From Klenkia terrae (lineage in GTDB: Bacteria; Actinomycetota; Actinomycetes; Mycobacteriales; Geodermatophilaceae): a stretch of DNA of 36,757 nucleotides. Both the position numbers and the translations under genes were made by a program. Under the pieces are notes generated by a model. The model had not been told where the DNA came from and did no database searches. It saw nothing but the letters and a program-made list of their open reading frames with translations. Shown here piece by piece: positions 17,884 through 28,650 of this stretch. Location: contig NZ_UEXK01000004.1 in assembly GCF_900491935.1 (NCBI RefSeq), forward strand, positions 2,129,868 to 2,166,624. The letters run 5' to 3'. The stretch's first letter is position 1. Each line of letters begins with the position of its first letter.

Positions 17884-19412
17884 TCAGACCGGGTGGCCGT
17901 CCACCGACCCGTCCACCGGCACCCGGGTCACCCCGTCGCCCACCGACTCGGCGGCGGCACCGGACAGCCGCTTGAGCAGCGAGGCCATGTCGATACCGGT
18001 CAGGTCACCGGACAGCTGCAGACCCTGCGCCACGTTGGAGGCCACCGAGCGGGACAGCGACCCCGGACCGTCGGCGCTGATCACGGTCATCTTGTCCACG
18101 CTGGACAGCGGGGCGGCCGCGGCGGCGACGACCTCGGGCAGCACCTTGACCAGCAGGTCCAGGATCGCGGCCTCGCCGTAGGTGCTGAAGGCCTGCGAGC
18201 GGGCGTCCATCGACTCCGCCTCGGCCTTGCCCTTGGCGAGGATCGCGGCGGCCTCGGCGACACCCTCGCGCTCGACGGCGTCGGCGATCGCCTGACGGCG
18301 CAGCTTCTCGGCCTCCCCGCGCTTGGCGCCCTCGATCGCCTCGGCGTCGGCCAGCGCCGACCGGCAGGCCCGCCGCCCTCGCCGGCGAGCTTGGCCTGCT
18401 CGGCGGCGGCCTGGGCGGCGGCGATGGTGGCCTGCCGGTCGGCCTCGGCGGTGAGGATCTTCGAGTTCTTGCGGCCCTCGGCCTCCTGCTCGACCCGGTA
18501 CCGCTCGGCGTCGGCCGGACGGCGGACCTGGGTGTCGAGCTGGGCCTGGGTCAGCGTCGCGGTGCGGGCAGCGACCTTCTCCTGCTCGGCGAGCACCTGC
18601 TGGTCCTGCGCGGCCTGGGCCAGCGGGCCGGCCGCGGCGGCGCGGGCCTTGGCGGCGTCGGTCTCGGCGGCGATCTCGGCCTGCTTGAGCGCCAGCTGCC
18701 GCTGGGAGACCGCGATGGCCTCGTCGGCCAGCAGCTGCTCCTGCTGCGCGGCCTGCCGGGCGCGGGCCTCGGCGATCGAGGCCTCCTTGAGCACCCGGGC
18801 GGCCTCGGGGCGACCCAGGTCGGCCAGGTAGGTGCCCTCGGCCTGGATGTCCTGCAGCTGGAAGGTGTCCAGCACCAGGCCCTGGCCGGTGAGGGACGAC
18901 TCGGCCTCTTCGGCGACGGCGGAGGCGAACGCCGCGCGGTCCCGGATGATCTCCTCGATGGTCAGCCGGCCGACGATCGAGCGCAGCGCACCGGCCAGCA
19001 CCTCCGAGGTGAAGGTGTCGATGCCGGCCTGCTGCTGCAGGAAGCGCTGGGCGGCGGCCCGGATCGAGGACTCGTTGCCGCCGACCTTGACGATCGCCAC
19101 GCCCTCCAGGTCGCACTTGACGCCCTGCTTGCTCACCGCGCCGCGGATGCCGACCGGGATGCGCCGGCTGGACAGGTCCAGGGTGTGCAGCTTCTGCACG
19201 ACGGGGAGCACGAAGATGCTCGCGCCCATCACGACCTTCTGGCCGGACATGTCGCGGCTGATCGACCCGTCGGCACCGGTGACCGACCGGCCCTGCCGCC
19301 CGGTGACCAGGAACGCCTGGTTGGGGCCGGCCACCTTGATCCGGGACAGCACCAGCAGGACGAGCAGGACGACCAGGACGGCGATGCCGCCGATCGCGAT
19401 GAGCAGGGTCAC
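17884..19412 (-). pseudogene. Flotillin-like SPFH protein with a single-base frameshift
   Basis: A flotillin/YqiD-type protein, about 509 residues if restored. It has an N-terminal membrane helix (LLIAIGGIAVLVVLLVLLVL), an SPFH domain to about 190 (VPVVQ-like FVLPVVQKLHTLDLSSRR), a long Ala/Glu/Gln coiled coil, and a C-terminal flotillin tail (ILDLLVKVLPEVVAAAA). The reading frame breaks between about 18366 and 18380. Upstream it reads AEQAKLAGEG and then becomes nonsense; the proper tail (SALADAEAIEGAKRGEAEKL) continues in another frame. The span is one base short of a multiple of three, consistent with one lost base in a GC run. This may be sequencing error or true inactivation. The GTG start overlaps nfeD by GTGA. 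Flotillins with NfeD partners organise membrane microdomains. Confidence 0.88.
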
Positions 19413-19954
19413 GTGGGGGTGCCTCCAGACGGTTCCGGTGCGGTCGAGACGACCTCCACCGAGGTCGGCGACGGGGTGTCGACGACGTAGACAGGGGTGC
19501 CGGTCGGCAGGGCGACCTCGCTGCGGGCGGCGTACTTGAGCTGCTGGCCGCCCAGGGACAGCCGGACCTCGCCGAACCCGCCGGCCGGGACGGCGGAGAC
19601 CACCACGCCCTGGCTGCCGAGCAGGTCGCCCTCGGTGAGGGTCGGCGCGGTGGGCATGTCGCGCAGGCCGCTGGCCAGCTTCACCGCACCGGCGGCCAGC
19701 GGGAGCGCGACGACCACCCCCACGACCAGGCAGAGCAGCACGGTGACCACGCCCGGCAGGTCCGGCAGCAGGGCGGACGCCGCCGCGCCGCCGAAGCCGC
19801 CCCCGCCGACGAAGGCGGCGATCGCCGGGAGGGAGAACGGGCCGTCGGCGTCGGGGTGGCCCAGGTGGCCGATCTCCCCGCCGACCAGCGCGAGCACCAG
19901 GACGAGCACACCGACGCCGCCCACGGCGAGGAACGCGAGCGCGGTGGCGTCCAA
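19409..19954 (-). CDS. NfeD-like membrane protein, flotillin partner
   Basis: 181 residues. The N-terminal membrane region holds about three helices (LAFLAVGGVGVLVLVLALVGG; LPAIAAFVGGGGFGGAAASAL; VVTVLLCLVVGVVVALPLAAGAV, in part). A C-terminal OB-fold domain follows (GSQGVVVSAVPAGGFGEVRL, AARSEVALPTGTPVYVV), as in short NfeD proteins (NfeD1b/YuaF type). These are almost always encoded beside flotillin; here the TGA overlaps the flotillin GTG. The start is TTG at 19954, with GAGAGGAG about seven bases upstream. It has no protease domain, so it is the short form. Confidence 0.88.
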   Translation of the reverse strand: MDATALAFLAVGGVGVLVLVLALVGGEIGHLGHPDADGPFSLPAIAAFVGGGGFGGAAASALLPDLPGVVTVLLCLVVGVVVALPLAAGAVKLASGLRDMPTAPTLTEGDLLGSQGVVVSAVPAGGFGEVRLSLGGQQLKYAARSEVALPTGTPVYVVDTPSPTSVEVVSTAPEPSGGTPT

Positions 19955-20043: not shown

Positions 20044-21378
20044 TCACCCGTCCGAGCGCCAGTCCGGTGGGTCGGCGGGGGACAGGTCGGGGTCGTCCCC
20101 GGCGTAGGTGCGCACCGGTCCGGGGGCGGTCCGCGGGCCCTCGAACCGGACGGTGACCCGGTTGAGGCCGCTGCCCCACACCCAGCCCCGGCCCATCTCC
20201 GCGTGCTCGACGTCCTGCCCCGGGTGCCACACCGGGACCGCCCGGACGGCCTCGGGCTCCGGGACGGCGTCGATGTCCTCCTCGAGGTCGGCGACCGGCT
20301 CGGGGTCCTCGGCGAACAGGTCGCCCTGCACATAGGTGGCCAGGCCGGAGACGCCGACCCCGAGCAGCCGCACCCCGCCGGTGCGGTCGATCCCGGCCAG
20401 CAGCCGGCGGGCGACGTCGGCGACCGTGCGGACGTCGTCGAAGGGCTGGGTCAGCGTCTGGGACCGGGTGAGGGTGGTGAAGTCGTAGCGGCGGAACTTC
20501 AGCGTCACGGTGCGCCCCGCCGTCCCGTCCTTCTGCAGCCGGGTCACCACCCGCTGGGCCAGCGAGCCGATCTCGTGCTCCAGCGTCGCGAGGTCGGTCA
20601 GGTCGGTGGCGTAGGTGCGCTCGGCGGAGACGCTCTTGGCCTCGCGGTCGGGCACGACCGGCCGGTCGTCGTCCGCCCGGGCCAGGCGGTACAGCCCCGA
20701 CCCGTGCGCCTGGCCGACCAGGGTGACCAGGTCGGTCAGCGACCGCTCGTGCAGGTCGGCGACCGTGCGGACGCCGACCGAGGACAGCCGGTCGCCGGTG
20801 GCCGGGCCGACGCCGGGCAGCGACCGCACCGGCAGCGGGTGCAGCACGTCGAGCTCGCTGCCGGCGGGGATGACCAGCAGGCCGTCGGGCTTGTCGAGCT
20901 CGCTGCCGATCTTGGCCAGCGTCTTGGACGAGGCGATGCCGACCGAGCCGCGCACGCCGCCGGTGGCCGTGTGGAGCCGCTCCTTGAGGTCGTGCGCCAG
21001 CGCGGTCAACGACTCGACGTCCAGGGCGTGGCCGCCGGCGGCCAGGTCGACGTAGGCCTCGTCCACGCTCACCTGCTCGACCAGCGGCGACAGCTCGCGC
21101 AGCAGGTCCATGACCACCCGCGAGGTGAGGGAGTACGCGGCGAACCGGCCGCCCAGGAACGCCGTCCCCGGGGGGCACCGGCGGCGGGCCTCGCCGCTGG
21201 ACATCGCGCTGCGCGCCCCGTAGGCGCGGGCCTCGTAGGAGGCAGTGGCGACCACGCCCCGGCCACCGGTCCCGCCGACCACCACCGGCTTGCCGCGCAG
21301 CGAGGGCTTGTCGCGCTGCTCGACGGCGGCGAAGAAGGCGTCCAGGTCCAGGTGGAGCACGCTGGCCTCGGATCGCAC
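20044..21378 (-). CDS. dinB: DNA polymerase IV (Y-family, DinB)
   Basis: 444 residues. This is a low-fidelity translesion polymerase. Palm metal ligands are in HLDLDAFFAAVEQ (D11) and SVDEAYVDL (D106-E107). The nucleotide contacts Y48 and R51 lie in SYEARAYGARSAM, with the thumb segment GIASSKTLAKIGSELDKPDG and the little-finger domain after about 230. The last 90 residues are an extension (ending PADPPDWRSDG) without a clean beta-clamp peptide that I can identify. The GTG at 21378 is chosen because the family starts 8-9 residues before the first Asp. Only 18 bases separate it from the divergent methyltransferase start. No SOS box was seen. Confidence 0.95.
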   Translation of the reverse strand: MRSEASVLHLDLDAFFAAVEQRDKPSLRGKPVVVGGTGGRGVVATASYEARAYGARSAMSSGEARRRCPPGTAFLGGRFAAYSLTSRVVMDLLRELSPLVEQVSVDEAYVDLAAGGHALDVESLTALAHDLKERLHTATGGVRGSVGIASSKTLAKIGSELDKPDGLLVIPAGSELDVLHPLPVRSLPGVGPATGDRLSSVGVRTVADLHERSLTDLVTLVGQAHGSGLYRLARADDDRPVVPDREAKSVSAERTYATDLTDLATLEHEIGSLAQRVVTRLQKDGTAGRTVTLKFRRYDFTTLTRSQTLTQPFDDVRTVADVARRLLAGIDRTGGVRLLGVGVSGLATYVQGDLFAEDPEPVADLEEDIDAVPEPEAVRAVPVWHPGQDVEHAEMGRGWVWGSGLNRVTVRFEGPRTAPGPVRTYAGDDPDLSPADPPDWRSDG

Positions 21379-21396: not shown

Positions 21397-21987
21397 ATGT
21401 CCGACCACGCGAGCTGGGCCGAGATCGTCGCCGAGGACCCCAAGCACTCCCAGCGGTACGTGGACCGGTTCCGCACGCTGGCCGCCGAGGGCGCCGACCT
21501 GGACGGCGAGGCCCGGCTGGTCGACGCCCTGCTGCCGCGCGGCTCGCGGGTGCTGGACGCCGGCTGCGGCCCGGGCCGGGTGGGCGGCGCGCTGCACCGC
21601 GTCGGGCACGTCGTCACCGGGGTGGACGGCGACCCGGTGCTCGTCGCGGCCGCGCGCACCGACCACCCCGGCCCGACCTGGCTGGTCGGCGACCTGACCA
21701 CGCTCGACCTGGGGACGACGTTCGACGGCATCGTCTGCGCCGGCAACGTGATCACCTTCGTGGCGCCGGACCGGCGACGGGACGCGCTGGCCCGGCTGCT
21801 GGCCCACCTGGAGCCGCCCGGTCGGCTGGCGATCGGGTTCGGCGACCACCGCGGCTACGGCTTCGCCGAGTTCCGCGCCGACGCCGCGGCGACCGGCTGG
21901 GCCGAGGACCTGCTGCTGGCCACCTGGGACCTGCGCCCGTGGACGCCGCAGTCGGACTTCCTGGTCGCCGTCCTGCGCCCCGCCTAG
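21397..21987 (+). CDS. Class I SAM-dependent methyltransferase
   Basis: 196 residues with motif [11 protein letters not shown] (52-61), the ribose-binding acid D77 (GVDGDP), motif II-like WLVGDL, and motif [16 protein letters not shown]. The fold is a short Rossmann methyltransferase of the Methyltransf_25 type; the substrate is unknown. The ATG at 21397 is chosen, but an in-frame ATG at 21382 would add MDDAC. Either start leaves almost no leader against divergent dinB, so a leaderless transcript or a promoter inside dinB is implied. Its stop overlaps the stop of the convergent NAD-kinase-like gene by 4 bases. Confidence 0.9.
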
Positions 21988-22874
21988 ACCCCCGGCTGGA
22001 CCAGCCGCAGCCGGCGAGCCGAGCGGCCGACGGTCACCTGCTGCCCCCAGGACAGCGTCAGGTGGTCGTCCTCCAGGCCGTCCCCGAAGACCACCAGCTG
22101 GTCGCTCTCCACGGTCAGCGCGAGCCGCTGGTCCCCGGTCAGCAGGCCCTCGGTGCAGGTCGTGCCGGTGACCGGCGAGGGCCACGCCTCCCGGACGAAC
22201 CAGGCCAGGGCGTCGTCCGTGGGCCCGGGCAGCGCCAGCCCGCTGCGCCGCTCCAGCGCCGCGGCGCGGCCCCAGCCGGTCGCCCCGGTGCCGGTGGAGA
22301 CCAGCACCCCGGACGACGCCTGCCGCTCCGGCTCGCCGCCGGGCGCCCGCAGCCGGTACCGGGCCGTCTGGTGGGTGGGCTGACCCAGGTAGACCTCGTT
22401 GAGCGCGGTGAGGGCCTGCCCGTCGTCGGCTCGCGCCTCGACCATGGTCAGCTCGTCGGCCCGGTCCCGGTGGGCCAGGAGGCCGGCGACGTCGTCGGCC
22501 CGGTGCCGGACCAGGACGCCGGCGTTGCGGCCGGGCTCGGGGTCGACACCCACCACCGGCTGGCCGTCGAGGTACTTGGCCACGTTGGCCACCAGCCCGT
22601 CCTGGCCGACCACCAGCACCACGTCGTCCGGGGCGAAGAGGAACCGCGGCAGGTCGCCCCGCTCCACGCTGCCCCGCCGCCAGTCCAGCGGCACCTGCGC
22701 CAGCGCAGCGGCCACCGCGGCCCGCTGGGCGGCGTCGTGCGCGGCGACCTCCTCGACGTCCCGCCCCCGGCTGCGCAGGAAGAACGCCGCCTGCCCGCGG
22801 GTGCCGTGCCGGGCCACCACCTCGGTCAGCTCGGTGGCCCGGTGCACCAGCACCACCCGCGGCGCCAGGCTCAC
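21984..22874 (-). CDS. NAD-kinase-like protein with altered GGDG motif
   Basis: 296 residues of the NAD/diacylglycerol-kinase fold. The hallmark GGDG becomes [11 protein letters not shown]; the catalytic Asp is kept but the second Gly is Gln. The NE motif is present as ALNEVYLG and the Gly-rich strand as [18 protein letters not shown]. The C-terminal half is rich in beta strands as in NadK. NAD kinases phosphorylate NAD to NADP; whether this version is active is unclear because of the substitution. The GTG start overlaps the SPFH stop (GTGA), so the two are made together, probably under the divergent NUDIX regulator. Most genomes of this kind also carry a standard nadK elsewhere, so this is a specialised paralogue (inference). 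Confidence 0.82.
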
Positions 22875-23869
22875 CGCTGTGCCCCCAGCTTGGCCAGCAG
22901 ACCGGTCAGCAGCTCCGGGGTGATGGTGAGGTTCTGGATCTGCGGCAGGTTGTTCGCCAGCTGCCGCAGCGCCAGCGCGTGCACCGTCTCGATCGGCAGC
23001 TCGGCCCAGGCGGCCAGCTCCGCCCGGTTGGCCGCGCCCGTCGCCTCGCCGAGCACCCGCTTGCGGTCGGCCTCCACCTCCATGGCGGTGCGGTCCCGCC
23101 GGGCCTTCGCCCCCGCCGCGACCTCGGCCGCCTCGGCCGCGTTCTCGGCCTCCCGGCGGGCGTTCACCCCGCGCTGGCCGACCAGCTCCTCCTCGCGGCG
23201 GGCCAGCTCGACCTGGTTGGCCAGCTCGTTCTCGCTGATCGCGCGCTCCCGCTCGACGGCGGTGGCCCGGCGGGCGTAGGTCGCGGCGTCCGCGGCGGCC
23301 TGCACCTGCTCGCGGGTCGGCGTCCGCAGCGCCCGCTCCATCTCGGGCTCGGGCCGGATCGCCACCACCCGGACGTCGACCACGGCGATGCCGGTCTCCA
23401 CCAGCCGGGCGTCGGCGGCCAGCCCGGCGGCCACGGCCGCCCGCACCGGGCCCACCCCGGCGGTGAGCACCGTGGTCAGCACGCCGCCGGCCAGCAGGTC
23501 GATGGCGTGCTGCTGGGCCGACTCGGTGAGCAGCCCGGCGACCTGCTCCAGCGGGGTGCCCCGCCAGGTGCCGGTGTCCGGGTCGACGGAGAAGTCGACC
23601 CGACCGGCGGCCAGCACCGGGTCGGCGAACCGGAAGGTCAGCGTCATCTGCACGGTGACGTCCTGGAAGTCCGCCGTCCGGGCGTGGAACAGCAGCGGGA
23701 GCTCGCGGTCGTCGACCGGGATCTCGCTGAGCACCGCCGACAGCGGGCGGAACCAGAAGCTGGCGCCGGTGCCGCCGTGCCGCAGCCGGCCGGCGGTGAC
23801 GTGCTGGACGTGCGCGGTCGCCGAGCCGCGCAGGTGCCGCACGAAGGGGTAGCGGGCGATGTCGGCCAT
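22871..23869 (-). CDS. Soluble SPFH/prohibitin-domain protein
   Basis: 332 residues. An SPFH (band 7) domain spans about 1-185, without the usual N-terminal membrane helix: [20 protein letters not shown], then [32 protein letters not shown] and [16 protein letters not shown] charged coiled coil ([20 protein letters not shown], Arg/Glu/Ala-rich to about 285) and a short C-terminal domain ([20 protein letters not shown]) follow. SPFH proteins oligomerise into rings or cages. This one would have to reach a membrane through its domain surface or partners. AGGAGG lies six bases before the ATG. It is the first gene of a two-gene operon with the NAD-kinase-like protein. Confidence 0.87.
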
Positions 23870-23884
23870 GTCTGCCTCCTGAGG

Positions 23885-23905
23885 TTGTCGTCAGCACGAC
23901 GATAA
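23885..23905. promoter_or_regulatory. Regulator site 1, overlapping the -10 of the SPFH promoter
   Basis: TTGTCGTCAGCACGACGATAA contains the inverted halves TCGTC-N5-GACGA. It shares TTGTCGTCA, the following GACG and a later T with site 2 at the same spacing. It covers the -10 hexamer of the minus-strand promoter, a repressor arrangement. Confidence 0.6.
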
Positions 23906-23928
23906 GCAGCAGGAGGGCTTGTCGTCAA
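23899..23928 (-). promoter_or_regulatory. Sigma70-type promoter of the SPFH-NADK-like operon
   Basis: On the minus strand, TTGACG (23923-23928) and TATCGT (23899-23904) are separated by 18 bases, a good vegetative promoter. Transcription would begin near 23892, giving a short leader with AGGAGG before the SPFH ATG at 23869. Confidence 0.65.
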
Positions 23929-23939
23929 TTTGACGCTAG
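23919..23939. promoter_or_regulatory. Regulator site 2, overlapping the -35 of the SPFH promoter
   Basis: TTGTCGTCAATTTGACGCTAG has the near-perfect palindrome CGTCAA-T-TTGACG at its centre and is a 34-bp-spaced copy of site 1. On the plus strand it runs into TAGGGT (23937-23942), a -10-like hexamer six bases before the NUDIX GTG, so one site could control both directions. Confidence 0.6.
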
Positions 23940-23948
23940 GGTGGCGGC

Positions 23949-24620
23949 GTGGCGCATCCCTCCTTCGCGGTGACCGTGGACCTCGTGGTGCTGACCGTCC
24001 GCACCGACGAGCTCTGCGTGCTGCTGGTGCGCCGCGGGGTCGAGCCGTTCGCCGGGCAGGACGCCCTGCCCGGCGGTTTCGTCCGCCCCGACGAGGACCT
24101 GGGGACGGCGGCCGCGCGCGAGCTGGCCGAGGAGACCGGCCTGGTCGTCGGCCACCTGGAGCAGCTGGCCTCCTACGGCGCGCCGGACCGCGACCCCCGC
24201 CAGCGGGTGGTGACCGTGGCGCACCTGGCCCTGGTGCCCGACCAGCCGGTGCCCACCGCCGGGTCCGACGCCGCCGAGGCCCGCTGGGTGCCGGTGCACG
24301 AGGCCCGCGGGCTGGCCTTCGACCACGACCGGGTGCTCGCCGACGGCGTCGAGCGGGCCCGTGCCAAGCTCGAGTACACCGCGCTGGGGACGGCGTTCTG
24401 CCCGGCCGAGTTCACCGTCGCCCAGCTGCGCCGGGTCTACGAGGTCGTGTGGGGCCGCGCCCTGGACCCGCGCAACTTCCACCGCAAGGTCACCGGCACC
24501 CCCGACCTGCTGGCGGCCACGGGGGAGACGACGACCCGGGACGGCGGCCGCCCCGCGCAGCTCTTCCGCCGCGGGACCGCCGACCAGCTGCACCCGCCGC
24601 TGCTGCGCACCGACACCTAG
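23949..24620 (+). CDS. NrtR-like NUDIX/winged-helix transcriptional regulator
   Basis: 223 residues. The N-terminal NUDIX domain (1-145) is followed by a C-terminal winged helix (about 150-215: LGTAFCPAEFTVAQLRRVYE, DPRNFHRKVTGTPDLL, GRPAQLFRR). This is the NrtR architecture, known for ADP-ribose-responsive control of NAD genes. Unusually for a regulator, the NUDIX box is fully canonical: G43-x5-E49-x7-R57-E58-L59-x-E61-E62-x-G64-L65. It may therefore also hydrolyse ADP-ribose or a related nucleotide. A GTG start with TAGGGT six bases upstream suggests a leaderless transcript. The divergent SPFH/NAD-kinase-like operon with two repeated sites is the obvious target (inference). Confidence 0.88.
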   Translation: MAHPSFAVTVDLVVLTVRTDELCVLLVRRGVEPFAGQDALPGGFVRPDEDLGTAAARELAEETGLVVGHLEQLASYGAPDRDPRQRVVTVAHLALVPDQPVPTAGSDAAEARWVPVHEARGLAFDHDRVLADGVERARAKLEYTALGTAFCPAEFTVAQLRRVYEVVWGRALDPRNFHRKVTGTPDLLAATGETTTRDGGRPAQLFRRGTADQLHPPLLRTDT

Positions 24621-27279: not shown

Positions 27280-28650
27280 TCAGTTGGCCATGTCCACGAA
27301 GCGGGAGTAGTGGCCCTGGAAGGCGACCGTGACGTTGGCGGTGGGGCCGTTGCGGTGCTTGACCAGCATGATGTCGGCCTCGCCGGCCCGCGGGGACTCC
27401 TTCTCGTACATGTCCTCGCGGTGGATCATCATGACCATGTCGGCGTCCTGCTCGATGGAGCCGGACTCACGCAGGTCCGACAGCATCGGCTTCTTGTCCT
27501 GGCGCTGCTCGGACCCACGGTTCAGCTGGCTCATCGCGATCACCGGGACCTCGAGCTCCTTGGCCAGCAGCTTGAGCGCACGGGAGAACTCCGAGACCTC
27601 CTGCTGACGGGACTCGACCCGCTTGCCCGACGTCATCAGCTGCAGGTAGTCGATGACCACCAGCTTCAGGTCGTTGCGCTGCTTGAGCCGCCGGGCCTTG
27701 GCCCGGATCTCCATCATCGTCATGTTCGGGGAGTCGTCGATGTAGAGCGGGGCGTCGGCGACCTCGCCCATCCGGCGGGCCAGCTTGGACCAGTCCTCGT
27801 CGCTGAGCGAGCCCGCGCGCATGTGGTGCAGCGGCACCTTCGCCTCGGCCGACAGCAGACGCATGGTGATCTCGTGCTTGCTCATCTCCAGGGAGAAGAT
27901 GCAGGCGGCCTGGTGGTGCTTGACCGAGGCGTTGCGGGCGATGTCCAGCCCGAGGGTCGACTTCCCCACGCCGGGTCGGGCGGCGATGACGATCATCTGG
28001 CCGGCCTGCAGGCCGTTGGTCAGCTCGTCGAGGTCGCGGATGCCGGTGGGCACGCCGCGGGCGGTGCCACCGCGGCTGGCGATCGCGTCCAGCTCGTCCA
28101 TGGTGGGCTGCAGGACGTCCTCGAGGCGCGAGTAGTCCTCGCTCATCCGCTTCTCGGTGACGTCGTAGATCTCCTGCTGCGCCCGGTCGACGATGTCGTC
28201 GACGTCGCCCTTGCCGCCGGCCGCGCCGTAGCCGAGCTGGACCACCCGGGTGCCGGCCTCGACCAGGCGGCGCAGCACGGCCTGCTCGGCCACGATCGCG
28301 GCGTAGTAGCCGGCGTTGGCCGCGGTGGGCGTGGACTGGATGAGCGTGTGCAGGTAGACCGCGCCGCCCATCTTGGACAGCTGGTCGGTGCGGTTGAGCT
28401 CGGCGGAGACGGTGATCGCGTCGGCGGGCTCGCCGCGGCCGTAGAGGTCGAGGATGCAGTCGAAGACGATCTGGTGCGCCGGGCGGTAGAAGTCCGCGCC
28501 GTGCAGGACCTCCACGACGTCGGCGATGGCGTCCTTGCTCAGCAGCATGCCGCCGAGCACCGACTGCTCGGCAGCGACGTCCTGGGGGGGCTGGCGGTCG
28601 TACTGCGGGGCCGAGGCCACCGGCCTGCTGATGTCGTCGAGCACTGCCAC
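27280..28650 (-). CDS. dnaB: Replicative DNA helicase DnaB
   Basis: 456 residues, the hexameric 5'-3' fork helicase. The N-terminal helical DnaB domain (20-125, PPQDVAAEQSVLGGMLL) is followed by a linker and RecA-like motor. Walker A is ARPGVGKST (224-232), and there is FSLEMSKHEITMRLL, the Walker B strand LKLVVIDYLQLM, SQLNRGSEQR and the arginine-finger region near the end (HRNGPT). Length is that of an inteinless DnaB; the sites where mycobacterial DnaB carries inteins are uninterrupted. The start is the GTG at 28650. It is separated from upstream rplI by nearly 600 bases and two terminators, so it has its own promoter. Confidence 0.97.
   Translation of the reverse strand: MAVLDDISRPVASAPQYDRQPPQDVAAEQSVLGGMLLSKDAIADVVEVLHGADFYRPAHQIVFDCILDLYGRGEPADAITVSAELNRTDQLSKMGGAVYLHTLIQSTPTAANAGYYAAIVAEQAVLRRLVEAGTRVVQLGYGAAGGKGDVDDIVDRAQQEIYDVTEKRMSEDYSRLEDVLQPTMDELDAIASRGGTARGVPTGIRDLDELTNGLQAGQMIVIAARPGVGKSTLGLDIARNASVKHHQAACIFSLEMSKHEITMRLLSAEAKVPLHHMRAGSLSDEDWSKLARRMGEVADAPLYIDDSPNMTMMEIRAKARRLKQRNDLKLVVIDYLQLMTSGKRVESRQQEVSEFSRALKLLAKELEVPVIAMSQLNRGSEQRQDKKPMLSDLRESGSIEQDADMVMMIHREDMYEKESPRAGEADIMLVKHRNGPTANVTVAFQGHYSRFVDMAN

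What the first reader, a model, noticed from the sequence alone, without database searches (positions are those of the whole stretch)
21984..24620. NrtR-controlled SPFH plus NAD-kinase-like module
Seen: an NrtR-architecture NUDIX/winged-helix gene diverges from a tightly coupled pair (GTGA overlap) of a soluble SPFH-domain protein and an NAD-kinase-like protein. Known: NrtR regulators sense ADP-ribose and usually control NAD biosynthesis genes. Inferred: here NAD status would switch a scaffold-like SPFH oligomer together with a nucleotide-kinase-fold partner. An SPFH protein lacking a membrane helix and co-made with an NADK paralogue points to a cytosolic or peripheral assembly linked to NAD(P) or ADP-ribose metabolism. 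I know of no described function for this pairing.
Basis: partly seen in the sequence, partly recalled or inferred. Interest (0 to 1): 0.78.

Follow-up and report, generated by a model that had tools for sequence, protein, structure and literature searches.

The report
NrtR-controlled SPFH and NAD-kinase-like module
A bacterial three-gene unit, found with the same layout in distantly related bacteria, pairs a scaffold-type protein with an unusual relative of the human mitochondrial NAD kinase, under a repressor of a family that usually senses NAD breakdown products; no published study of it was found.

Summary
NADKL (21984-22874, -) and SPFH (22871-23869, -) overlap by GTGA and diverge from an NrtR-type gene (23949-24620, +). 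In an evenly drawn order sample 39 of 298 genomes have NADKL; the same 39 have SPFH, adjacent in all 39, with divergent NrtR in 36. The trio recurs in six proteobacterial records opened; Treponema keeps SPFH-NADKL. No fourth conserved gene was found. Two 21-bp operators overlap the SPFH promoter. Streptomycetes, whose NrtR orthologue lies elsewhere, keep them and carry one before the distant NrtR gene (5 of 5 genomes): strong comparative evidence for control. NADKL is predicted to fold as a NAD kinase; among solved structures mitochondrial NADK2 is its best sequence match. It keeps the catalytic Asp and NE/D motif, but GGDG is GQDG (20 of 22 relatives not picked by that motif, GPDG in two). 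The SPFH protein has no evident transmembrane segment. Most likely NAD breakdown induces an SPFH assembly carrying an NADK2-like NAD(H) kinase; ligand, kinase activity and complex are inferred. Each part belongs to a known superfamily; combination, kinase subfamily and regulon look new.

The parts
21984..22874 (-). NADKL: NAD-kinase-superfamily protein, 296 aa, NADK2-like, GQDGL in place of GGDGT
22871..23869 (-). SPFH/Band 7 protein, 332 aa, no evident transmembrane segment, predicted 115-residue helix after the SPFH domain
22871..22874 (-). 4-nt GTGA stop/start overlap between SPFH and NADKL
   Evidence: a 4-nt overlap in 63 of 80 genome-contig loci
23885..23905 (-). operator 2, TTATCGTCGTGCTGACGACAA, over the -10 of the SPFH promoter
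23919..23939 (-). operator 1, CTAGCGTCAAATTGACGACAA (2 mismatches to the pattern), over the -35 of the SPFH promoter and touching the nrtR -10
23899..23928 (-). probable SPFH-NADKL promoter: TTGACG (23923-23928), 18 nt, TATCGT (23899-23904)
   Evidence: sequence; TTGACN-N16..20-TATCGT in 75 of 92 actinobacterial upstream regions and 0 of 1840 shuffles
23937..23942 (+). probable -10 (TAGGGT) of a leaderless nrtR transcript, 6 nt before the GTG start
   Evidence: TANNNT 5-8 nt before the start in 35 of 47 against 48 of 940 shuffles
23949..24620 (+). NrtR-type repressor: NUDIX domain with intact Nudix box plus NrtR winged helix, 223 aa

Best explanation
A self-contained, NAD-status-responsive module. 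The NrtR-type repressor sits on two 21-bp operators, 34 bp centre to centre, that cover the -35 and -10 of the SPFH-NADKL promoter and reach its own promoter. When its ligand (most likely ADP-ribose or a close relative released by NAD breakdown) binds the Nudix domain, it lets go and SPFH and NADKL are co-translated. SPFH assembles into a ring or dome without a membrane helix (cytosolic or peripheral), and NADKL, a NADK2-like enzyme, docks on it and phosphorylates NAD(H) there, making a local or protected NADP(H) pool when NAD is being consumed. Shown here: genes, conservation, operators and their link to this regulator lineage, predicted folds, retained catalytic residues. Inferred: ligand, enzymatic activity, oligomer, SPFH-NADKL contact, physiological use.
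For: Conserved trio: order sample, NADKL and SPFH in the same 39 of 298 genomes, adjacent 39 of 39, NrtR divergent 36 of 39; phylum sample, 12 of 296 genomes strong for NADKL, all 12 among the 13 strong for SPFH, the 13th (G211) cut at a contig end; divergent trio in six proteobacterial records. No other conserved neighbour within 7 kb: next ORF cluster 5 of 28 genus labels against 26 (SPFH), 24 (NADKL), 20 (NrtR), by a crude gene caller. Operators: 90 of 92 actinobacterial SPFH upstream regions score at least 13 of 16, none of 1840 dimer shuffles; the two failures (L013, L020) belong to genomes whose nearest NrtR is only 46% and 38% identical. In 7 whole genomes both sites stand before SPFH in 6 and one in the seventh; one stands before the distal nrtR in 5 of 5 genomes taken as Streptomyces (2 mismatches each); reversed-pattern control 0. 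The distal NrtRs group with a module NrtR (98/91). NADKL model pLDDT 93.3; the 50 listed PDB matches are NAD kinases by title (2an1 only 'putative kinase'), TM-score by query length highest for mitochondrial NADK2, 0.73. Catalytic Asp and NE/D Asn invariant in 11 of 11 diverse members. In two of three opened loci a paralogous NrtR precedes an ADP-ribosylglycohydrolase.
Against: GGDG, said to be found in all NAD kinases (PMC8553519, passages), is altered to GQDG or GPDG throughout. No Pfam NAD_kinase match; NCBIfam scores about a tenth of the cut-offs or less. By target length Listeria NADK1 fits better (TMt 0.72) than NADK2 (0.64), and the best E-value is P. aeruginosa NADK. The host has a canonical NAD kinase. 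The module is patchy, so not essential. No operator match was traced to NAD biosynthesis genes; seven further matches in three genomes remain, two of them (G023) with one mismatch. In the third paralogue locus (L169) the next two ORFs match nothing in Pfam. No evidence of SPFH-NADKL contact was obtained. Cupriavidus, Treponema, Roseomonas, Rhizobium and Methylomonas lack a good operator of this form.
Confidence: 0.42

Rival explanations
1. NADKL is a pseudokinase: it binds NAD(P)(H) or ATP as a sensor and gates SPFH assembly, but transfers no phosphate.
For: The second Gly of GGDG is replaced by Gln or Pro in all 102 members read (22 of 22 in the set not picked by motif), next to the catalytic Asp; the host keeps a canonical NAD kinase.
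Against: The catalytic Asp, the NE/D Asn and the Thr of region II are kept; loss of catalysis usually frees these positions. The other departures (SSG for DG, TGTG...W for TPTG...Y) are shared with NADK2 (alignment), an active enzyme according to PMC8553519 (passages).
Confidence: 0.25
2. NADKL is a kinase for another nucleotide such as ADP-ribose, NAAD, a damaged NAD(H) or an NAD-capped end; the module is a repair or detoxification device induced by that compound.
For: A family-specific VRE...PS segment and an invariant Trp; M. smegmatis NrtR responds to ADP-ribose (PMC6800001, passages); a paralogue of the regulator heads an ADP-ribosylglycohydrolase, with RlaP of RNA repair next in one locus.
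Against: No direct evidence for any other substrate; the NE/D motif that belongs to the NAD site is kept.
Confidence: 0.2
3. An SPFH membrane-organising or quality-control scaffold of the HflK/C or flotillin type, in which NADKL is only an accessory factor.
For: Sequence-profile match to HflK and fold matches to HflK/C, stomatin, erlin, flotillin and prohibitin; flotillin binds membranes without a transmembrane helix (PMC11260169, passages).
Against: No 19-mer in the first 60 residues reaches a mean hydropathy of 1.4 in 100 SPFH proteins, the window's included; no other neighbour is conserved; NADKL accompanied SPFH in 39 of 39 genomes.
Confidence: 0.1
4. The regulator senses a sugar, as AraR does, and the pair acts in carbohydrate metabolism ('sugar kinase' of some annotations).
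For: Best PDB sequence match of the regulator is AraR (7.5e-34); NADKL is annotated 'sugar kinase' in Rhizobium.
Against: NrtR_WHD scores far better than AraR_C (4e-15 against 2.3e-4); no sugar kinase among the NADKL matches listed; no sugar gene is conserved nearby.
Confidence: 0.05

Closest known systems
NrtR Nudix-related NAD regulators (e.g. Mycobacterium smegmatis NrtR)
   Same: NUDIX plus NrtR winged helix, divergent from its target operon, palindromic operators, autoregulation likely
   Different: Strict Nudix box in 46 of the 55 NrtRs found in the loci; operator TTATCGTC-N4-TGACGANAA unlike the M. smegmatis GTTTTCGA-N7-TCGAAAAC (PMC6800001, passages); stands before an SPFH/NADKL pair rather than nadABC
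NAD kinases, especially mitochondrial NADK2 (C5orf33)
   Same: Predicted full-length fold (TMq 0.73), best sequence hit in PDB, SSG...TGTG...W signature, catalytic Asp and NE/D
   Different: GQDGL for GGDGT; encoded with SPFH; shorter; not in Pfam NAD_kinase
SPFH proteins (HflK/C, stomatin, flotillin, erlin, prohibitin)
   Same: SPFH domain followed by a long helix
   Different: No transmembrane-like N-terminus; NADKL as regular partner
Major vault protein (SPFH 'shoulder' plus cap helix)
   Same: Structural match along the SPFH and helix part, TMq 0.41-0.48; a cage-forming SPFH protein whose PDB entries include ADP, ADP-ribose and PARP4 complexes (titles)
   Different: No MVP repeats; no sequence-profile match to MVP; other SPFH cages score about the same
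NrtR - ADP-ribosylglycohydrolase cluster of Streptomyces-like genomes
   Same: Close NrtR paralogue (62-64% identity in the two loci opened)
   Different: Different effectors; main paralogue clade separate (100/98)

Membership tests
NrtR regulators | N-terminal NUDIX plus C-terminal NrtR winged helix | tested here: met
   PF00293 82.8 bits (cut-off 21.1), PF21906 56.1 bits (cut-off 27)
NrtR regulators | NCBIfam equivalog NF050029 (ADPR-responsive repressor) | tested here: not met
   138.7 bits, cut-off 400; same superfamily but not that equivalog
NrtR regulators | Conserved palindromic operators at its own and target promoters | tested here: met
   binding itself not tested
NrtR regulators | Controls NAD biosynthesis or salvage genes | tested here: inconclusive
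   In 7 genomes no match was traced to such genes, but seven further matches (two with one mismatch, G023) were only partly examined
NrtR regulators | Binds ADP-ribose | not testable with these tools
   needs EMSA or ITC
NAD kinase | NAD kinase fold | tested here: met
   predicted model only
NAD kinase | GGDG motif | tested here: not met
   GQDG or GPDG in 102 of 102 (80 of them fetched by patterns that include GQDGLVAN), and in 22 of 22 fetched otherwise; the Asp is kept
NAD kinase | NE/D short motif | tested here: met
   Asn159 invariant in 11 of 11, followed by E or D
NAD kinase | Conserved region II (DG...TPTGSTAY) | tested here: inconclusive
   Thr kept; D to S and Y to W, as in NADK2
NAD kinase | Phosphorylates NAD(H) | not testable with these tools
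   enzyme assay needed
SPFH | Band 7 domain followed by a helical domain | tested here: met
   PF01145 37.9 bits, cut-off 23.6
SPFH | N-terminal membrane anchor (HflK/C, stomatin, prohibitin) | tested here: not met
   hydropathy only; a peripheral or lipid anchor is not excluded
Major vault protein | MVP repeats before the SPFH domain | tested here: not met
   332 aa with the SPFH domain at the N-terminus
Known anti-phage defence systems | Match of SPFH or NADKL to PADLOC models | tested here: not met
   no match at E<=0.01

The most novel reading that the evidence does not exclude
A bacterial, membrane-free SPFH cage that houses a NADK2-type kinase: an NAD-metabolism compartment, switched on by NAD breakdown, analogous to the eukaryotic vault and its ADP-ribosylation partner. 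Its kinase would be the nearest known prokaryotic relative of mitochondrial NADK2, whose clade is described as of ancient and unknown provenance (PMC6675116, passages; the same paper makes it sister to the cytosolic eukaryotic clade, which speaks against a separate bacterial source).
Probability: 0.12. Interest if true: 0.88.

Novelty: new variant of a known kind. Interest (0 to 1): 0.64.

Why it matters
Many bacterial SPFH proteins lack a known biochemical role. Here one is tied, in every genome of the order sample that has it, to a nucleotide-enzyme relative and usually to an NAD-type repressor, which gives a direct test of what an SPFH assembly does. It also exposes an NADK2-like lineage in bacteria outside Pfam's NAD_kinase model and annotated as hypothetical or 'sugar kinase', and an NrtR regulon apparently separate from NAD biosynthesis. 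A two-gene, well-bounded unit with clear operators is easy to delete, express and image.

Tried and rejected
Defence system: no PADLOC match for SPFH or NADKL (a weak 1.9e-4 hit of the Nudix part only), no NADKL match in 50,697 phage records nor in the viral-contig scan; set aside, not excluded. Lipid or diacylglycerol kinase: none among the 50 listed of 812 PDB matches. Larger operon: no fourth conserved gene found. E. coli: no blastn match of the Proteus module in 20,395 records. Vault membership: rejected on missing MVP repeats and no sequence match; kept only as analogy. The second SPFH gene nearby (window 17884-19413) is a flotillin type and was not treated as part of the module. VIA-align look: library not available. 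A gene tree with eukaryotic NADKs was not built, so the NADK2 kinship rests on hmmsearch scores (48.7 against at most 27.6 bits for other kinases) and shared motifs. The operator consensus was read from the same upstream regions that scores; the independent test is its presence before the distal nrtR genes. The motif tally leans on loci fetched with GQDGLVAN or TGTGATGW patterns, so it was recounted without them.
Full report
What is there. Window 21984-24620 holds three genes: NADKL (21984-22874, -, 296 aa), SPFH (22871-23869, -, 332 aa) and an NrtR-type regulator (23949-24620, +, 223 aa); the first two overlap by GTGA. The window lies in a 4.8 Mb genome; the closest named NADKL relative is Klenkia brasiliensis at 86%, so the host is probably a geodermatophilacean actinobacterium (inference).

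Conservation. SPFH lies just upstream in 79 of 80 (the exception, L083, is a 3.4-kb contig), with a 4-nt overlap in 63 of 80; NrtR is divergent in 43 of 44 non-streptomycete loci and in 0 of 36 streptomycete loci, sorted by record title. That set is chosen by similarity, so I used evenly drawn samples too. Order sample: NADKL strong in 39 of 298 genomes (four further hits at 20-22 bits not counted), SPFH (E<=1e-20) in the same 39, adjacent in 39, NrtR (E<=1e-40) divergent in 36; of the other three, G498 is cut at a contig edge, and in G316 and G326 the best NrtR lies on another contig. Phylum sample of 296: NADKL strong (best match 161 bits or more) in 12 genomes, with 68 more at about 37 bits or less; 13 of 18 of these opened carry GGDGT, i.e. 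ordinary NAD kinases. SPFH is strong in 13, those 12 plus G211, whose contig ends inside SPFH; two more SPFH hits are marginal, E about 8e-4. Distant relatives occur in 57 of 72,556 plasmid records; ten regions were opened. A divergent NrtR-SPFH-NADKL layout is present in Rhizobium etli, Moraxella, Methylomonas, Cupriavidus, Providencia and Proteus; Treponema, Roseomonas and Kitasatospora have SPFH-NADKL without a divergent neighbour NrtR; pHHV216 has a truncated SPFH. Within 7 kb of NADKL in the 80 loci (several on short contigs, crude gene caller) no fourth family is conserved: the next ORF cluster reaches 5 of 28 genus labels, against 26, 24 and 20 for the trio.

Operators. Upstream of SPFH two 21-bp sites of the form TTATCGTC-N4-TGACGANAA stand 33-34 bp apart in 74 of 82 regions with both. 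In 92 actinobacterial upstream regions, 90 have a site scoring at least 13 of 16 (46 of 47 with adjacent NrtR, 44 of 45 without) and 82 a second at 12 or more; dimer shuffles (20 per region) gave none. The failures, L013 and L020, are in genomes whose nearest NrtR is only 46% and 38% identical. The SPFH promoter pattern TTGACN-N16..20-TATCGT occurs in 75 of 92 (0 of 1840 shuffles), its -35 in operator 1 and -10 in operator 2; a leaderless nrtR -10 occurs in 35 of 47 (48 of 940 shuffles). In 7 whole genomes (up to 2 mismatches) both sites before SPFH were recovered in 6, one in G107. A site with 2 mismatches stands before the distal nrtR in 5 of 5 genomes that I take for Streptomyces (unnamed, genus g8); reversed-pattern controls gave 0. 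Seven further matches: G023 439069 and 445508 (1 mismatch), 3550354 and 8471267; G193 3206844 and 7043611; G246 C26:11850, just before the paralogous nrtR; only partly examined. The distal NrtRs form one clade (99/95) joined with the module NrtR of Nocardioides limicola (98/91); seven paralogues form a separate clade (100/98), three others fall among module NrtRs on long branches, and L140 is an outlier; the fork holding all module and distal rows of Actinobacteria is weak (92/73). So, most simply, the regulator gene moved while its sites stayed. In Moraxella, Providencia and Proteus the best sites fit TTANNGTC-N5-GACNNTAA at 12 of 12 positions, the same 21-bp layout; Methylomonas reaches 9, Rhizobium 8, Cupriavidus, Treponema and Roseomonas 7.

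NADKL. Phmmer against PDB: NADK2 5e-6, other NAD kinases 0.035 or weaker; profile: NADK2 48.7 bits, next best 27.6. AlphaFold2 pLDDT 93.3, pTM 0.87. The 50 listed of 812 Foldseek matches are NAD kinases by title (2an1 'putative kinase'); best E (1.4e-17) is P. aeruginosa NADK; TM-score by query length is highest for human mitochondrial NADK (0.73), but by target length Listeria NADK1 (0.72) beats it (0.64). Profile-profile comparison with 9 canonical actinobacterial NADKs: 97.7% probability, GQDG aligned to GGDG and NE to NE. The motif is GQDGL in 99 of 102, GPDGL in 2, GPDGM in 1; in the 22 not fetched by motif patterns, 20, 1 and 1. The review PMC8553519 (passages) gives the GGDG Asp as the base that activates the 2'-hydroxyl, notes GGDGL in alphaproteobacterial kinases, so only the Gln is out of place, and lists Asn/Glu of NE/D and Thr/Tyr of region II as vital in M. 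tuberculosis Ppnk; NADKL keeps the Asp, Asn, Glu or Asp, and Thr, and has Trp for Tyr, as the NADK2 alignment also shows. The host has a separate canonical NAD kinase. PMC6675116 (passages) reports nadK duplicates in Actinobacteria including Streptomyces coelicolor; I could not tell whether its nadK2 is NADKL.

SPFH. AlphaFold2 pLDDT 87, pTM 0.54: SPFH domain (1-173), helix 175-289, short C-terminal helices at low confidence. In 100 SPFH proteins (the window's included) no 19-mer of the first 60 residues exceeds mean hydropathy 1.38; three exceed 1.6 anywhere, starting at residues 122-160. Profile match HflK 7.4e-5; Foldseek: HflK/C, stomatin, erlin, vault protein, prohibitin, flotillin, with similar scores. 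PMC13100048 (passages) states that canonical SPFH proteins bind membranes through motifs upstream of the domain; here almost nothing lies upstream. Ring assembly is inferred from the family.

Regulator. Of 55 NrtRs found in the loci (one, Treponema, 4 kb from its SPFH; one, L021, not divergent), 46 have a strict Nudix box; all six proteobacterial ones lack it. M. smegmatis NrtR is released by ADP-ribose and showed no hydrolase activity (PMC6800001, passages). Paralogues (62 and 64%) precede an ADP-ribosylglycohydrolase in two of three paralogue loci opened, with RlaP next in the one where it was tested; in the third (L169) the next two ORFs match no Pfam family. PMC9503650 (passages) describes Nudix-type regulators with such glycohydrolases and infers ADP-ribose sensing. 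This makes ADP-ribose the leading ligand but does not show it.

Literature. Searches for SPFH with NrtR, NAD kinase with SPFH and operon (19), NADK2/bacterial homolog/SPFH (54), SPFH domain with Nudix and gene neighborhood (55), NrtR with Streptomyces and regulon (80), SPFH with NUDIX and sugar kinase (94) and NrtR with ADP-ribosylglycohydrolase (95) showed no description of this trio in the held open-access library, judged from listings and, for eight papers (some found by other searches), from passages. The Pseudomonas aeruginosa SPFH survey (PMC13086221, passages) has no mention of NAD kinase or Nudix in its main text. Rodionov 2008 on NrtR is not held and is known to me only by recall, so a mention there cannot be ruled out.

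Verdict. A real, widespread module that I found no study of; regulation well supported by comparison, biochemistry open.

Noticed in passing
window 17884-19954 (-): A second SPFH gene (Flotillin match PF15975) overlapping a small protein with a strongly hydrophobic segment and no Pfam match (NfeD-like by position, recalled), about 2 kb beyond NADKL; a relative of the flotillin also lies near the module in Klenkia, Blastococcus and Frankia.
   Followed up: partly
window 20044-21255 (-): DinB-type translesion polymerase (IMS, IMS_C).
   Followed up: partly
window 27280-28650 (-): Replicative helicase DnaB.
   Followed up: partly
L112, L117, L118: In Moraxella, Proteus and pHHV216 records NADKL lies close to tet(H) or tet(J); in pHHV216 the SPFH gene is cut next to a transposase, so a module fragment may have travelled with the tetracycline gene.
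   Followed up: partly
L113:5992-7179: Roseomonas NADKL (395 aa) has a C-terminal extension with a basic, then strongly hydrophobic stretch, as if tethered to the membrane.
   Followed up: no
L168:4241-6747, L171:4887-6649: Paralogous NrtR followed by an ADP-ribosylglycohydrolase in Streptomyces-like genomes; in L168 RlaP (RNA repair) follows too.
   Followed up: partly
G171 / L129: A g8 genome in which no SPFH or NADKL match was found still keeps the distal NrtR and an operator beside it.
   Followed up: partly
L170 (G023:C1:439069 and 445508): Two operator-like palindromes near one end of a g8 genome's long contig, beside genes not identified; possible extra regulon members.
   Followed up: partly
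L111: Treponema module has a different palindrome (AAAGTAGTAAAAAACTACTTT) at the SPFH start and a Nudix regulator gene 4 kb away.
   Followed up: no
L093: Acidobacteria MAG carries a module whose NrtR groups with an Acidimicrobiia MAG (100/93): transfer or mis-binning.
   Followed up: no
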